A program made the position numbers and the translations under genes. Source: a virus. From it: DNA of 37,899 nucleotides. Below, piece by piece: positions 1,623 to 20,704 of this stretch (positions within the stretch are counted from its first letter, which is position 1; every line of letters starts with the position of its first letter). The stretch lies in the IMG/VR virus record IMGVR_UViG_3300047557_002630, positions 1-37,899 of that record. One strand, given 5' to 3'. A model generated the notes under the pieces. That model saw only the letters and a program-made list of their open reading frames with translations. It had not been told where the DNA came from and searched no databases.

Positions 1623-3680
1623 TTACGTTTTGACAATGTAGTTGACGACAGCGTAGTTGACCGCCGTCGACGTCGTATCCTGGTTACTATTACCATCAAC
1701 TCCACCGGTCACTAAGCCAATTCGTCCGGCAAAGTTGCCAGAGCCGTGCGTGTGATTTGGCGTCGAGTGAGTATGATTCGCACTGACACCAGCAGTTGTG
1801 CCAGACACCGCGTGAGTATGATCTATATTTGCAGCGTTTATAGAGATGCCAGTGTAAGAGGCATCCATTCTAGCGGCAGGGTTAGTGTACGTATCTGATA
1901 CGCCGCGCCTGTTGCTGCCACCTCCTGGTACGTCTAAAGTTCTCCAGATATTATGCGCGTGTCCAGGGTCTGAGACGCCGTGACTGTGACTTGCGTTCGC
2001 ACTCATTGCTCCACTCGTCGCGCTGAACGTGTGCGTGTGACCGGCTGATTCAGTACCGGTGGTGCCGCTACCGGAGGCTGAGATATTCAGGTCTGCGCCA
2101 GAGCCCATACCGTGATGGTGGCCGACCGTTTGATGCTTGTGAGTTATAGTTCTCGATGCGGCTGCAATTCCGTCGCTGTCTCCCAGAGCATCCGTGGCTC
2201 CTACGGCTGCTCCTGCGCCTAGCGGTACTCGTCGCTGAAGGTCAGGAAGGTTGAAAGTAGTTGAGCCGTCACCGCTTCCGTACGCCGTTCCGAGTGCTGT
2301 GAATAGGTCGGCGTAGGTAGTTCGTGAAACCGCTTGCCCCTGGCACAGCAGCCATCCCGAGGGAGCAGTTGACCCTGCATATGCTGTGATCATGCCGGCA
2401 GGTAGGAAGAAGGCTGATGCGTGGTAGCCGTCAACGGTGTCGGCATTAAGATTAGTGCAGACGGTCGTGCTTGCAACCGTTAGCGGCGCAGTCCCAGTAG
2501 AGACGGTAGACTCGATTGTATTAAACGCAGCGTCGCCTGCCGTTCCACTGAAGACCTCGGAGGTGTTAGTAGCGTCAGGTATACAGGTGAATTTGCTAGT
2601 GCTGTCGTCGTAACCGAAGAACCCGACCTTTGCGCCTGTCCCGTCGTGCCACCTGAACTCTATGCCTCGGTCCTTATTGTCGTCACTTGTCGGAGCTGTG
2701 TCGCCTCCGAGCGTCATTACTGGGTCGTCGATAGTGACAACCGTTGAGTTCACCGTTTGAGTTGTGCCGTTGACTATTAGGTTTCCGAGGACCGAAACGT
2801 CACCAGCCGGAGAAACAGATAGGAGGTTGTTGGCTGAACTGTTTTGAACCTCAAGAATGTTAGCTGTCGCGCTCGCAGCTCCTCTTACAATAAGCCCCTT
2901 GCGGTCGGCTGCTGCGGCAACTACGTTCACTTGCGCGAGCCCAGTTAAAGTAGATATGCCGAAGCCCACTCGCGGCGCGGCTGTAGACCCGGCTGTCTTG
3001 CCCTCGACTCGCATAGCTTCCGCGTCAGCCGCTGCGCCCATCCTAATAGAGAAGGTCACGCCGTCGTCGCCACAGGCAATGAAACCGCCTGTATAGTTGC
3101 CGTATTGAAGGTAGCTCTTTCCGACTCTTATCCACTGATAGTTTGCCCACATATACATCGAGACGGTCGAGCCGCTCCTCGCGTATAAGTCGGCCTGGGA
3201 GCCTACGTTGTTTACGTCGAACAATACCGCGTCTGCTGAGTTTCTCACCTCAAAGACGTTGGCTGTTTGACCAGCTATGCCTTTCGCAATTAGAGCCTGG
3301 GAAGACGTGGCAGGTGAGGAGAAAGTCTTGAGCCCGGTAAACGTCTGAGTGCCGGTGGTTACAACGCCACGAGCTGTAGTGCTTGCGTCCGGTAGGTTGA
3401 AAGTATGCGTCGAGGTTGAACTGCTGATGGCGAAGTTAGTCCCGCTGGTGCCAGTTGCAAACGTCTGCGTAGAGGCTGTGAGACCTCCTAGCGACGAAAT
3501 GCCTCCGCCGCCCCCTCCCCCGCCAGCGCCGATCTGAACGATGCTTGGAGTGCCATCGTCTTTCTTGAAGAACAGCAGTCCGTCGTACGTGTTGAGAAAA
3601 ATCTCCCCGAGCTCAATCGAGCCTGTGGTCGGCACGGCCCCTTGCGTAGCCGAGCGCCTATGTTTGATTGTTACTGTCAT
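1623..3680 (-). CDS. Tail fibre with collar domain and His-rich tip
   Basis: A 685-residue receptor-binding type fibre. Residues 1-50 resemble the N-terminal domain of phage fibre/tropism proteins (TIKHRRS, then ELGEIFLNTYDGLLFF), followed by a Gly run and low-complexity Ser/Thr/Ala repeats. A phage tail collar domain lies at about 428-500 (APSGWLLCQG, GSGDGSTTFNLPDL). The last 170 residues contain many HxH pairs (HKHQTVGHHHG, HTHTF, HSHG, HAHN), as in metal-binding tips of T4 gp12-type fibres, and end IGLVTGG...NYIVKT. The tip is homologous to the fibre at 19673-20704. The ribosome site GGGAGGGG lies 6 nt upstream. Attachment to host surface structures is inferred. Confidence 0.9.
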   Translation of the reverse strand: MTVTIKHRRSATQGAVPTTGSIELGEIFLNTYDGLLFFKKDDGTPSIVQIGAGGGGGGGGISSLGGLTASTQTFATGTSGTNFAISSSTSTHTFNLPDASTTARGVVTTGTQTFTGLKTFSSPATSSQALIAKGIAGQTANVFEVRNSADAVLFDVNNVGSQADLYARSGSTVSMYMWANYQWIRVGKSYLQYGNYTGGFIACGDDGVTFSIRMGAAADAEAMRVEGKTAGSTAAPRVGFGISTLTGLAQVNVVAAAADRKGLIVRGAASATANILEVQNSSANNLLSVSPAGDVSVLGNLIVNGTTQTVNSTVVTIDDPVMTLGGDTAPTSDDNKDRGIEFRWHDGTGAKVGFFGYDDSTSKFTCIPDATNTSEVFSGTAGDAAFNTIESTVSTGTAPLTVASTTVCTNLNADTVDGYHASAFFLPAGMITAYAGSTAPSGWLLCQGQAVSRTTYADLFTALGTAYGSGDGSTTFNLPDLQRRVPLGAGAAVGATDALGDSDGIAAASRTITHKHQTVGHHHGMGSGADLNISASGSGTTGTESAGHTHTFSATSGAMSANASHSHGVSDPGHAHNIWRTLDVPGGGSNRRGVSDTYTNPAARMDASYTGISINAANIDHTHAVSGTTAGVSANHTHSTPNHTHGSGNFAGRIGLVTGGVDGNSNQDTTSTAVNYAVVNYIVKT

Positions 3681-15496: not shown

Positions 15497-16183
15497 TCAG
15501 TTCCAGAAGTACATGAGCTGGTCCGTCCAGCCGCCCCAGGTCTGGTCTCGGCGAATGCTGATGTGCATTCTGTTATGCTTAAAGTGAGAACAGAGCCAGC
15601 CGATACGCTCGCGCGCGTTGACGCACGACTTGTCTACGCGGAAGTGATATTCGAGAACGATTGCTCTAATTCCATCTAGCGGAAATCGCGCTTCGAGGAG
15701 CTCCATTTCGGCGCCCTCTATATCAATCTTGAGTCCCTGCGGTCGGTGCTTTTCGATTTGCTCGGCCAGACTGAGATTGTCGACAGCCCTGCGATTCTCT
15801 TTCTGGAAACCACCTGAGCGAGCCGGAGTGCGCTCGTTGAATCCGACCTCAGTTGCACCAGTATTCTTCGCCCCGATGAACGCTGTCGTGACGGTGGATA
15901 GACAGCCGTTCAAACGTAGATTCTCTCTCGCCACTGTTGCGTTCTCTTCGCAAGCCTCGTAGCCATGCACGACAGCGCCGCGCATCTTCTCTGCCCACAC
16001 GCCGAACGCGCCGATATTAGCACCGCAATCTAGCCACGTATCACCTCTCGCGACGCCGAATCCGAGTCGTGGTCGTTCGTACGCGCTGCGGATAGCAACC
16101 TCTGAAATGACCTCCTCGTCGTGTGGTCCGCGAACTATGAACTGCAGGGGACCGTATCTTCGAACTTCTGCGTCGGTGCTCAC
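15497..16183 (-). CDS. FkbM-family SAM-dependent methyltransferase
   Basis: A 228-residue Rossmann methyltransferase. Motif I is WLDCGANIGAFGVWAE, the acidic ribose-binding position follows in HGYEACEEN, and the FkbM signature GLKIDIEGAEMELLEA comes later, then IVLEYHFRV. FkbM enzymes O-methylate hydroxyl groups on small molecules and sugars. No DNA methylase target motif (PC, DPPY) is present. GTG at 16183 is preferred because AGAGG lies 9 nt before it; GTG at 16204 would give a 20-nt overlap with the dioxygenase gene but has no ribosome site. It lies directly after a TET/JBP-like gene, suggesting it may methylate the hydroxyl that enzyme makes. Substrate inferred. Confidence 0.85.
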   Translation of the reverse strand: MSTDAEVRRYGPLQFIVRGPHDEEVISEVAIRSAYERPRLGFGVARGDTWLDCGANIGAFGVWAEKMRGAVVHGYEACEENATVARENLRLNGCLSTVTTAFIGAKNTGATEVGFNERTPARSGGFQKENRRAVDNLSLAEQIEKHRPQGLKIDIEGAEMELLEARFPLDGIRAIVLEYHFRVDKSCVNARERIGWLCSHFKHNRMHISIRRDQTWGGWTDQLMYFWN

Positions 16184-16184
16184 G

Positions 16185-17039
16185 TTAGGAATCCTCTCTG
16201 ACACCGTGCTGGTCTACGATAGCCTCGTCGAGCAATCCGGCACGTCGAAGCTCTCTTTGTTGCTTCACCTTCCGAATACGCGCCAGCTCACGATCCAGCG
16301 GCTCGCATTTCCACATCCCGCGGAGCGAGTAGTAAACTACCGTGAACCTGTACGCGCCTTCGGCTACTGAACGTATCGGCGTTACCCCGTGAAGAATCTT
16401 CTGTCCGTCAAACATACTCAGAGTGCCGTCGGCGATCTCGAGCGCGAAATCGTACTCAGGAAAACTCAGATATCCGCCGCTGACGCCGCCCTTGAAGCCG
16501 AGCATACACGAGCAGACGTCGTGAAAGTTCCCCGCATCGAAGTGATACTTTAGAGGGTTGTTCTTGTTTATGATGCCGCTGGTGAATACCGAACCCGGCA
16601 TTGTCCACTCGCCTAAGACCTTCTCAGTCATCTGTTCGTGCCGACCTAAGACCTCCGGGAATAGCTCTCTATACTCCTCGCATATGCTCTTCCCTAACTC
16701 GCACAACTTGCTGTTTATGTCCGGGTTAGAGTTCGCCAAGCTAGTAGCAGTGCAGTAGTCACGGCGTAGTGCCACGCGCGGCTGATACCCGAACACTCTG
16801 CTGTTGGTTTTCAATCCGCCGGTGCGAGTGCTCGCCTGATATTCGATCCGGCGAAGTTCGCTGGCCAGATCCTTTGCTGCCTCCGGAGCGCGGACATACG
16901 CGATTATCGGCACGCCTCCGTAGGTGAATATGGTCGGCTCGCTGATGAGCGTAGAATAGTCCGTCTCGAGCGCCGACTTCTTCACGAATTGCTCGTAGTC
17001 GATCTCTTTCCGCTTCCCTTCTAACTCAATCGTCTGCAT
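16185..17039 (-). CDS. TET/JBP-like 2-oxoglutarate Fe(II) dioxygenase
   Basis: A 284-residue protein with the double-stranded beta-helix metal site: His166 and Asp168 (KYHFDAGN), His217 (ILHGVTPI) and the 2-oxoglutarate Arg231 (AYRFTVVYYSL). Flanking motifs FTSGIINKNN (152-161), GGYLSFPEYD (188-197) and SMFDGQ (208-213) match the TET/JBP branch, which hydroxylates 5-methylcytosine or thymine in DNA. Residues 78-100 (SRVFGYQPRVALRRDYC) form the expected N-terminal cap. The ATG overlaps the ParB stop by 14 nt. No cytosine methylase is encoded in the window, so thymine (JBP-like) is a reasonable substrate; that is inference. It could also hydroxylate something other than DNA. Confidence 0.82.
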   Translation of the reverse strand: MQTIELEGKRKEIDYEQFVKKSALETDYSTLISEPTIFTYGGVPIIAYVRAPEAAKDLASELRRIEYQASTRTGGLKTNSRVFGYQPRVALRRDYCTATSLANSNPDINSKLCELGKSICEEYRELFPEVLGRHEQMTEKVLGEWTMPGSVFTSGIINKNNPLKYHFDAGNFHDVCSCMLGFKGGVSGGYLSFPEYDFALEIADGTLSMFDGQKILHGVTPIRSVAEGAYRFTVVYYSLRGMWKCEPLDRELARIRKVKQQRELRRAGLLDEAIVDQHGVREDS

Positions 17040-17643
17040 GGTTATCCGCTTCGTGTTGCTTCCACATACCTAAGAGAAACTGTACCGCGCTGCTGTTATC
17101 GGTGACGTCTGGCACCGACTTTTGAATCGCGAGTAATTGCTTGAGAACGTCCGCGTAGGTAGCGCTATCGAAATAGAGCACGATTTGCTTGATCGAGGCA
17201 GTGTCGTAGCCGTCCTTCTTTTCGCTGAGGTTGTCGACGTCCTCTGCGCGCTCCTGTTCCATCCACGCGGTGAGCGTCTCGAGCCCGAACGCCTCGATAT
17301 CCCATTCCTGCGATTTCAGATGATCGAGCTCGGATGCAAGACTTTCCCAGTTCCAAGTAGAATCGCCCTGTAATTTGTTGTCGATGATGCGATACGCGCG
17401 CTTTTGCTCGTCTGTAAGGTCTCTCTTGATCGTCACCGGTACTTGCTGCATGCCGAGTTTCTTGGCTGCCTCCCAGCGTCCGTGACCTACCAGAATGATA
17501 TTATTCTCGTCGACAACAAGAGGTTGATTGAATCCGAATTGCTGAATCGAGTTGGCAATACGATCGATCTGTTCAGCGTTGTGTACGCGGTTGTTAAGGG
17601 AATAGGCGATGATTGACTCCACCGCCATTGCTTGAACGTCCAT
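17026..17643 (-). CDS. Orphan ParB/sulfiredoxin-fold protein
   Basis: A 205-residue protein with a single ParB-type domain at about 1-95: AYSLNNRVHNAEQIDRIANS, FGFNQPLVVDENN, LVGHGRWEAAKKLG and KRAYRIIDNKL. The C-terminal half is helical and ends without a partner domain. In many phages this module precedes a DNA methylase; here a TET/JBP-like gene follows instead. The fold includes CTPases, ATP-using kinases and DNA-binding proteins, so it could be a substrate selector or a base-modifying phosphotransferase. It has a very strong ribosome site (CAACGGAGG, 4 nt upstream). No parA or parS context is seen, so plasmid-type partition is unlikely. Confidence 0.85.
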   Translation of the reverse strand: MDVQAMAVESIIAYSLNNRVHNAEQIDRIANSIQQFGFNQPLVVDENNIILVGHGRWEAAKKLGMQQVPVTIKRDLTDEQKRAYRIIDNKLQGDSTWNWESLASELDHLKSQEWDIEAFGLETLTAWMEQERAEDVDNLSEKKDGYDTASIKQIVLYFDSATYADVLKQLLAIQKSVPDVTDNSSAVQFLLGMWKQHEADNHADD

Positions 17644-19672: not shown

Positions 19673-20704
19673 CTAAGTGGTGATGATGTAATTAAGAACC
19701 AGGTATGGAGGATCTCCCGCGCCAGTTGTCATCGCGCTATTTCCGCTGACCCCGCCTGTCACTAGCCCGATGCTGCCACTGAAACTAGCGGAGCCGTGTA
19801 CGTGAACGCCGCTTGTATCCTGTCGGTTCGTTGTTCCTAAACTGGTCACGGTGATCGTGTGGTTGTGTCCCGAGTCGGTGAGACTTACGTCGTGTCGATG
19901 GTTTCCGTTCGACAGTGTTATATTGCTGTCTGTTGTCAGGGTAGCGCCGTTAGTATCTCCGGTGCCGCTGACGGCAGTCGGGCGAGCTTTTGCAAACTTG
20001 TTGCCGGAATTGCCGGTATTCTTACCGTCACCGGCAGTAGTGGTGCCGTGTCCCTCAATGGTATGCGCGTGACCAGGATCGTTGAGTGTGACGTTGCTGT
20101 AGCCGGTATACCCGGTCGATACTGATACGTTGCTGTTTGCGTTTACCGACGACGCGGTGTGTCCGTGAGCGATGTCGATGGTCGTTGTGTGTGTCCCGCT
20201 CGACGCGATATTGAGGTCTGCTCCTGTTCCCATCCCGTGATAATGCCCGGGAACCGAGTGTGTGTGCCCGAGGGCACCGCCACTTGCTCCGACGTTAGCC
20301 GTTGTGCCCGACAGGGTCTTGCCCAAAGGGAACTTCCCGGTCAGGTCTGGCAGGTTGAAGGTCGTAGAGCCGTCCCCAGAGCCGTAGGTTGTGCCGATTG
20401 CCGAAAAGAGAGCAGAGTAGGTCGATCGACTGACGGCTGCTCCGTCGCAAAGTAAATGACCTCTCGGCGCCGCTGTTCCGGCGAACGGTTTTACAATCCC
20501 CGGTTGCTCCACCCGCTGCTCTACCCAGGCACTCCCTGACCACTCCTCCAGTACCCTGTTCGTGCGATTGAATCGCAGAAAGCCGACCGCTATGTTCGTG
20601 GCTCCGGAGAAATCCATCTTAGCTATGGCTGAGTCTCTGTCTCGAATTATCTCCAAGACCTCAGAAACTAGCGTCGTGTTTATTGGGAGAGAAAAGTCTG
20701 TCAT
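19673..20704 (-). CDS. Tail fibre with collar domain, tail-tip copy
   Basis: A 343-residue protein. Residues 1-65 form a distinct anchor (VSEVLEIIRDRDSAIAKMDF, FNRTNRVLEEWSG). A phage tail collar domain follows at about 72-130 (APRGHLLCDG, GSGDGSTTFNLPDL). The rest is Ser/Thr-rich with HxH pairs (HTHSVPGHYHGMGTGADLN, HVHG) and ends IGLVTGG...NYIITT. The tip is clearly homologous to the 685-residue fibre at 1623-3680, but the anchor differs, indicating two attachment sites on the virion. The start overlaps the J-like gene stop (ATGA). Confidence 0.9.
   Translation of the reverse strand: MTDFSLPINTTLVSEVLEIIRDRDSAIAKMDFSGATNIAVGFLRFNRTNRVLEEWSGSAWVEQRVEQPGIVKPFAGTAAPRGHLLCDGAAVSRSTYSALFSAIGTTYGSGDGSTTFNLPDLTGKFPLGKTLSGTTANVGASGGALGHTHSVPGHYHGMGTGADLNIASSGTHTTTIDIAHGHTASSVNANSNVSVSTGYTGYSNVTLNDPGHAHTIEGHGTTTAGDGKNTGNSGNKFAKARPTAVSGTGDTNGATLTTDSNITLSNGNHRHDVSLTDSGHNHTITVTSLGTTNRQDTSGVHVHGSASFSGSIGLVTGGVSGNSAMTTGAGDPPYLVLNYIITT

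What the first reader, a model, noticed from the sequence alone, without database searches (positions are those of the whole stretch)
15497..17643. Overlapping ParB / TET-JBP dioxygenase / FkbM methyltransferase cassette: candidate DNA hypermodification system
Three consecutive, tightly spaced or overlapping genes encode an orphan ParB-fold protein, a TET/JBP-like 2OG-Fe(II) dioxygenase with an intact HxD...H...R site, and an FkbM-type methyltransferase. TET/JBP enzymes are known to hydroxylate methylated or 5-methyl pyrimidines in DNA, and FkbM enzymes are known to O-methylate hydroxyls. A possible pathway is thymine or 5mC to a 5-hydroxymethyl base to a 5-methoxymethyl base, guided or activated by the ParB-fold protein. 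I do not know of a described phage pathway with this exact trio, though I could not search.
Basis: partly seen in the sequence, partly recalled or inferred. Interest (0 to 1): 0.85.

Follow-up and report, generated by a model that had tools for sequence, protein, structure and literature searches.

The report
Phage TET–methyltransferase DNA base-modification cassette
A virus of bacteria carries three linked genes that probably oxidise thymines in its own DNA and then cap them with a methyl group, where close relatives add a sugar; the set recurs in many aquatic viruses and predicts a DNA base not yet described.

Summary
On the minus strand lie an orphan ParB-fold gene (17026-17643), a TET/JBP dioxygenase (16185-17039) and an FkbM-type methyltransferase (15497-16183 or 16204). 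The dioxygenase has an intact HxD/H/R site, and its predicted fold matches NgTET1, CMD1, CcTet and TET2 before anything else. The trio is not a one-off. In IMG/VR, 69 of 84 FkbM loci of this subfamily lie beside a TET gene and 61 have all three genes. It also occurs in cultured phages: Pelagibacter HTVC112P and Prochlorococcus P-HS2 and MED4-117. In related phages the slot beside TET holds a "TET-associated" DNA glycosyltransferase (TAGT) instead. One pair of contigs, with 95% identical TETs and colinear flanks, differs by exactly FkbM versus TAGT. Other relatives carry amino-acid:DNA transferases and kinases, the 5-hydroxymethyluracil pathway. A cytosine-C5 methylase is absent from 31 of 32 records, and thymidylate-synthase-type hydroxymethylases from all 32. 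The best reading is that TET makes 5-hydroxymethyluracil in DNA, FkbM O-methylates it to 5-methoxymethyluracil, and ParB assists. The linkage and the slot swap are shown; the chemistry is inferred. I found no description of a TET-FkbM system in the papers I could search, but the key 2013 and 2021 papers were not readable.

The parts
17026..17643 (-). Orphan ParB-fold protein, 205 aa, without a recognised DNA-binding domain; GGAGG ribosome site before the ATG
   Evidence: PF02195 E 9e-11; phrog_620 E 9e-44; start context
17473..17487 (-). ParB box G53-H-G-R-W57 (GxxR nucleotide-binding-type motif); G53 invariant, the Arg largely kept
   Evidence: alignment of 13 TET-linked ParBs
16185..17039 (-). 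TET/JBP-family Fe(II)/2OG dioxygenase, 284 aa; start overlaps the ParB stop by 14 nt
   Evidence: PF12851 E 4.6e-8; fold match NgTET1 E 8e-13
16536..16544 (-). HxD iron ligands H166 and D168
   Evidence: invariant in 36 relatives
16527..16529 (-). N171, three residues after D168; aligns with the Asn of TET2 HRDLHN; Asp in the HTVC112P-type clade
   Evidence: PDB profile alignment; column count 29 N, 7 D
16389..16391 (-). Third iron ligand H217
   Evidence: invariant in 36 relatives
16347..16349 (-). 2OG-binding R231
   Evidence: invariant in 36 relatives
15497..16183 (-). FkbM-type class I SAM methyltransferase from the likelier GTG start (alternative GTG at 16204)
   Evidence: PF05050 E 1e-11; AF2 pLDDT 91.3; start context
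16004..16036 (-). SAM-binding motif I WLDCGANIGAF
   Evidence: W57, D59, G61, G65 and F67 invariant in 32-34 FkbMs
15707..15730 (-). FkbM motif KIDIEGAE
   Evidence: K159, I162, E163, G164 and E166 invariant

Best explanation
This is a phage DNA-modification operon that acts on already polymerised DNA. The TET/JBP enzyme hydroxylates the 5-methyl group of thymine in the phage's DNA, giving 5-hydroxymethyluracil. The FkbM-type enzyme then transfers a methyl group from SAM to that hydroxyl, giving 5-methoxymethyluracil. FkbM takes the slot that a DNA glycosyltransferase (TAGT), or a kinase plus amino-acid:DNA transferase, fills in relatives. The ParB-fold protein is a conserved accessory, perhaps an NTP-dependent clamp or loader that brings the enzymes to DNA. 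The product would mask the phage genome from restriction and other DNA-sensing defences. Shown here: the families, intact active sites, fold, recurrent linkage, slot exchange, and absence of genes for other routes. Inferred: thymine as substrate, O-methylation as the chemistry, the ParB role, and the benefit.
For: (1) TET identity by fold and active site. (2) FkbM-TET linkage: 69 of 84 FkbM loci have TET adjacent and 61 have the full trio, in two gene orders. Searches seeded with TET alone agree: 25/26 HTVC112P-type and 6/6 L049-type TETs have FkbM next door. (3) Slot exchange: among 80 cyanophage-type TETs, 22 have FkbM, 21 have TAGT, none has both (hypergeometric p 3e-4, not corrected for kinship). 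L168 and L169 have TETs 95% identical and ~79% identical DNA on both sides, differing by FkbM versus TAGT. PF20691/TAGT includes the T6 DNA glucosyltransferase that adds a second glucose to glucosyl-hmC (PMC13216743). (4) Thymine rather than 5mC: PF00145 is absent from the window and in all from 31 of 32 records; PF00303 from all 32. Relatives pair the same TET families with PF18724 'Amino acid:DNA transferase' and P-loop kinases of the thymine pathway. (5) The FkbM phages have no TAGT (0/17) and 16/17 have no GT2, so there is no obvious sugar to methylate.
Against: No biochemical or mass-spectrometric data. FkbM enzymes known to me act on small molecules and glycans, not on DNA. The window's TET is nearest in sequence (43-50%) to TETs paired with TAGT; its TET and FkbM trees were not compared in detail. 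L103 has ParB-FkbM-TAGT-terS with no TET in between, so some distant FkbMs of this group have another partner. L038's contig has GT2-type genes. One FkbM record (contig of L100) does have a C5-MTase. N171 is compatible with either base (human TET2, a 5mC enzyme, has Asn there), and the HTVC112P clade has Asp, which may mean cytosine there.
Confidence: 0.5

Rival explanations
1. Same enzymes, but the substrate is 5-methylcytosine supplied by a host or unseen methylase; the product is 5-methoxymethylcytosine.
For: The solved TETs closest in fold act on 5mC. From my memory, a 2021 PNAS paper (Burke et al., not held in the library) reports phage TETs active on 5mC. One trio record has a C5-MTase. 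The HTVC112P-type clade has Asp at the position where NgTET1 (my knowledge) uses Asp to read cytosine.
Against: No C5-MTase in 31 of 32 records, including the complete HTVC112P, P-HS2 and MED4-117 genomes; PF00303 absent from all; relatives carry thymine-pathway enzymes.
Confidence: 0.15
2. FkbM belongs to the DNA-modification system but does different chemistry: methyl-esterifying a 5-carboxypyrimidine after repeated TET oxidation, or methylating a sugar or other group placed on the base by the host.
For: TETs can oxidise stepwise to carboxyl (established knowledge). FkbM co-occurs with TAGT in L085 and L103 and with an amino-acid:DNA transferase in L127.
Against: FkbM and TAGT exchange for each other in the same slot; no TAGT in 17 FkbM-phage records.
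Confidence: 0.15
3. TET and ParB modify DNA, but FkbM is a neighbour with another job, such as methylating a host glycan, tail protein or metabolite.
For: In the window the cassette follows tail and lysis genes rather than preceding the terminase; FkbM enzymes are usually small-molecule or glycan O-methyltransferases.
Against: The recurrent tight linkage in at least three TET clades and both gene orders, the slot exchange with TAGT, and its position between ParB and TET in half of the cases.
Confidence: 0.1
4. The dioxygenase acts on RNA, protein or a metabolite and the module has nothing to do with DNA bases.
For: No activity has been measured; public records misname the family 'queuine tRNA-ribosyltransferase'.
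Against: TET/JBP fold, and neighbours in relatives that are DNA glycosyltransferases, amino-acid:DNA transferases, ParB and terminase.
Confidence: 0.04

Closest known systems
Actinophage ParB-TET/JBP-pyrophosphorylase-kinase operons (Gordonia CaiB, PMC9302106; Mycobacterium Prince)
   Same: ParB gene overlapping a homologous TET/JBP gene, followed by a base-decorating enzyme; TET 33-37% identical
   Different: Decoration by kinase plus amino-acid:DNA transferase (PF18724), directly upstream of the terminase; no FkbM
Phage TET plus TET-associated glycosyltransferase (TAGT, PF20691) systems
   Same: TET up to 95% identical between the two kinds in cyanophage-type loci; same ParB-X-TET slot
   Different: X is a glycosyltransferase in one, an FkbM methyltransferase in the other
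Base J pathway of kinetoplastids (JBP1/2 plus JGT)
   Same: In-DNA hydroxylation of thymine by a TET/JBP enzyme, then capping of the hydroxymethyl group
   Different: Glucose cap, eukaryote, no ParB; here a methyl cap is proposed
Phage thymidine hypermodification (M6, ViI, PhiW-14)
   Same: 5hmU as the foothold for a further group
   Different: There 5hmU is made at the nucleotide level by a thymidylate-synthase homologue; here PF00303 is absent and oxidation would be in DNA
FkbM-family O-methyltransferases (PF05050; PDB 2py6)
   Same: Family match and conserved SAM motifs
   Different: A TET-linked subfamily; DNA hydroxymethyl as substrate would be new

Membership tests
TET/JBP dioxygenases (PF12851) | Profile match | tested here: inconclusive
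   E 4.6e-8 but 32.9 bits against a 34.9 cut-off; HTVC112P homologue 103 bits
TET/JBP dioxygenases (PF12851) | HxD...H...R iron and 2OG site | tested here: met
   Invariant in 36 relatives
TET/JBP dioxygenases (PF12851) | TET/JBP fold as nearest solved fold | tested here: met
   Top 26 PDB matches are TET/JBP
TET/JBP dioxygenases (PF12851) | Oxidises the 5-methyl of T or 5mC in DNA | not testable with these tools
   Needs enzyme assay
FkbM methyltransferase family (PF05050) | Profile match above cut-off | tested here: met
   45.7 bits against 22.7
FkbM methyltransferase family (PF05050) | SAM motif I and DIEG motif kept | tested here: met
FkbM methyltransferase family (PF05050) | O-methylation activity | not testable with these tools
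   Needs enzyme assay
ParB_N (PF02195) | Profile match above cut-off | tested here: met
   42.1 bits against 26.3
ParB_N (PF02195) | Acts in ParABS partition with ParA and parS | not tested
   No ParA was named among the ORFs scanned; no dedicated search for ParA or parS was made
5mC-dependent phage TET systems | Cognate C5-cytosine methylase in the phage | tested here: not met
   PF00145 absent from the window and from 31 of 32 records
M6/ViI-type thymidine hypermodification | Thymidylate-synthase-type hydroxymethylase | tested here: not met
   PF00303 absent
M6/ViI-type thymidine hypermodification | Amino-acid:DNA transferase and 5hmU kinase | tested here: not met
   PF18724 and PF18751 absent from the window and from the cultured trio phages; present in some TET relatives
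TET-TAGT glycosylation systems | TAGT glycosyltransferase | tested here: not met
   PF20691 absent from the window and 16 other FkbM-type records

The most novel reading that the evidence does not exclude
A widespread family of aquatic phages replaces thymine in DNA by 5-methoxymethyluracil, made in two steps on finished DNA by a TET/JBP thymine hydroxylase and the first known DNA-acting FkbM O-methyltransferase, with the decorating enzyme swapped for a glycosyltransferase by recombination as an arms-race allele.
Probability: 0.42. Interest if true: 0.85.

Novelty: new variant of a known kind. Interest (0 to 1): 0.68.

Why it matters
It predicts a DNA base not reported in the literature I could search, and a new activity for the FkbM family. 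It shows TET-based modification in phages as a modular system in which the capping enzyme (methyltransferase, glycosyltransferase, amino-acid transferase) is exchanged while TET and ParB stay. It makes the question directly testable, because the trio is present in cultured phages of Pelagibacter and Prochlorococcus. A methyl cap would be the smallest known way to hide 5hmU from glycosyltransferase-reading or hmU-excising defences. A TET/FkbM enzyme pair could also serve as a reagent.

Tried and rejected
Reading the trio as a one-phage oddity: rejected by 61 full trios in IMG/VR and three cultured-phage records. Partition system: no ParA was named among the ORFs scanned and the ParB is TET-linked in relatives. 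'Queuine tRNA-ribosyltransferase' as in PHROG 6059 and RefSeq: rejected by Pfam and fold. A search for prophage relatives in 84,980 bacterial species with the window TET found none, so the host is unknown. ParB-seeded search of IMG/VR found nothing at its sensitivity. Rows from GenBank phage records were not accepted for structure prediction, so A5 and A6 were made from IMG/VR loci only. N171 as a marker of thymine specificity: dropped, because TET2 has Asn there too. A FkbM-versus-TET profile comparison was uninformative. Papers: no held paper joins FkbM, ParB and phage; the papers I remember as Iyer 2013 (NAR) and Burke 2021 (PNAS) are not held, so priority could not be settled.

Full report
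What the window is. The window is a 37,899-base IMG/VR virus record with no terminal repeats. Its genes are those of a temperate siphovirus: terminase, portal, HK97-type head, tail with a J-like fibre, transglycosylase, integrase, RecE-like exonuclease and replication initiator, and the main genes are all on the minus strand. The trio lies after the tail and lysis genes and before the integrase.

The observation. ParB (17026-17643), TET/JBP (16185-17039) and FkbM (15497-16204 or 16183) are real open frames with family support. ParB has a strong GGAGG site. TET starts inside the ParB stop region (14-nt overlap). The TET Pfam score is slightly below the curated cut-off, so I tested it by structure. 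AlphaFold2 gives pLDDT 93.8 and Foldseek's first 26 PDB hits are NgTET1, CMD1, CcTet and TET2, then AlkB and FTO. H166, D168, H217 and R231 are invariant across 36 sequences as low as 22% identical. The FkbM model (pLDDT 91.3) is a class I SAM methyltransferase; its nearest named sequence relatives in the PDB include 2py6 'Methyltransferase FkbM'.

Recurrence. tblastn of the FkbM against 50,697 phage records gave only 7 hits at E 0.01. Six of these also carry a TET hit directly beside it: Pelagibacter phage HTVC112P gp17-gp18-gp19 (ParB-TET-FkbM, the same order as here), and Prochlorococcus phages P-HS2, MED4-184 and MED4-117 (ParB-FkbM-TET-terS-terL). A profile search of IMG/VR with six FkbMs returned 80 loci; with the earlier ones that makes 84, of which 69 have TET within 900 bases and 61 the full trio, 36 as ParB-FkbM-TET and 25 as ParB-TET-FkbM. 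The closest, L049-L053, share 46-58% identity with the window's FkbM and the same order. Because that search was seeded by FkbM, I repeated it with TETs as seeds: 25 of 26 HTVC112P-type and 6 of 6 L049-type TETs sit beside FkbM; of 80 cyanophage-type TETs, 22 have FkbM, 21 have TAGT and the rest other or no partners; of 34 found with the window's own TET, 30 have TAGT. In a TET tree the FkbM partner appears in several deep clades, needing at least 3 to 4 changes, so the partnership has formed or broken several times (quick tree, long branches, sampling biased to FkbM loci).

The slot exchange. In relatives L002-L035 the gene between ParB and TET is PF20691, 'TET-Associated Glycosyltransferase'. 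This family includes the phage T6 enzyme that adds glucose to DNA (PMC13216743; also PMC13390438). In the cyanophage-type set FkbM and TAGT never occur together in that slot. Contigs L168 and L169 are colinear at about 79% DNA identity on both sides, encode TETs 95% identical, and differ by exactly one gene: FkbM at 1533-2216 in one, TAGT at 2800-3492 in the other. This natural swap is the strongest single piece of evidence that FkbM performs the capping step. FkbM-type records lack TAGT (0 of 17) and 16 of 17 lack GT2, so methylation of an added sugar is not the simplest reading.

Which base. Cytosine-C5 methylase (PF00145) was found in 1 of 32 records and thymidylate-synthase-type enzymes (PF00303) in none, with controls ringing in well-known genomes. 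The complete genomes HTVC112P, P-HS2 and MED4-117 are among the negatives. Thymine is then the only 5-methylpyrimidine such a phage is sure to have. Independently, TETs of the same groups are found with PF18724 amino-acid:DNA transferase and P-loop kinases: L215, L217, L228, L127 and Mycobacterium phage Prince, whose TET is annotated 'thymidine hydroxylase'. Those enzymes build on 5hmU (established knowledge of the M6/ViI/PhiW-14 pathway). The Asn three residues after the HxD Asp aligns with TET2's Asn, so it does not decide between T and 5mC; seven sequences, all of the HTVC112P-type clade and its neighbours, have Asp, and for them cytosine stays open.

Mechanism. Shown: families, sites, fold, linkage, slot exchange, and absence of alternative-route genes. 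Inferred: TET oxidises T in DNA to 5hmU; FkbM methylates the hydroxyl to 5-methoxymethyluracil; ParB, which keeps the G-x-x-R box but no recognised DNA-binding domain, helps target or load the enzymes; the benefit is defence evasion. A 2025 paper notes that ParBc proteins often accompany phage DNA-modification genes with unknown function (PMC12783734).

Exceptions. L103 has ParB-FkbM-TAGT-terS without TET in between; L127 joins FkbM with ADDT, an FAD-type enzyme and a kinase; the contig of L100 has a C5-MTase. These are distant or single cases but show that the FkbM step may be combined differently.

Known or new. The ParB plus TET/JBP pair in phages is known (CaiB paper, PMC9302106). A TET-FkbM module was not found in the searchable literature, but two central papers were not held, so I claim a new variant of a known kind, not a new kind.

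Noticed in passing
L168 and L169 (IMGVR_UViG_3300027798_001131 and 3300044846_000680): Clean single-gene replacement of FkbM by a TAGT glycosyltransferase between colinear flanks: an arms-race allele swap.
   Followed up: yes
L127:4366-8479: Operon ParB-FkbM-ADDT-FAD enzyme-P-loop kinase-TET: FkbM together with the thymine amino-acid pathway.
   Followed up: partly
L217:634-4295, L215 and L228: ParB-glutamine amidotransferase-(GNAT)-ADDT-kinase-TET-terS operons, possibly another thymine hypermodification.
   Followed up: partly
L103:2649-5379, L085: ParB-FkbM-TAGT; in L103 this leads straight to the terminase without a TET gene, so the source of the hydroxymethyl group is unknown (L085's contig ends after TAGT).
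   Followed up: no
PHROG 6059; CPWG_00022 in MED4-117; many RefSeq mycobacteriophages; HTVC112P gp18; Caulobacter phage Cr30; phage DLP6: TET/JBP proteins are mis-annotated as queuine tRNA-ribosyltransferase or as DnaJ/SNF2 DNA repair protein; the ParB of MED4-117 (CPWG_00024) as DNA methylase.
   Followed up: partly
window:13868-14233: Imm_superinfect (PF14373) membrane protein just after the integrase gene: candidate superinfection exclusion.
   Followed up: no
window:1623-3680 and 19673-20704: Two separate tail-collar fibre genes sharing PHROG matches (9116, 19618 and others), far apart in the genome.
   Followed up: no
window:13638-13667: 13-bp G+C-rich hairpin followed by a T run on the plus strand, opposite to the main genes: possible terminator of an antisense or plus-strand transcript.
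   Followed up: no
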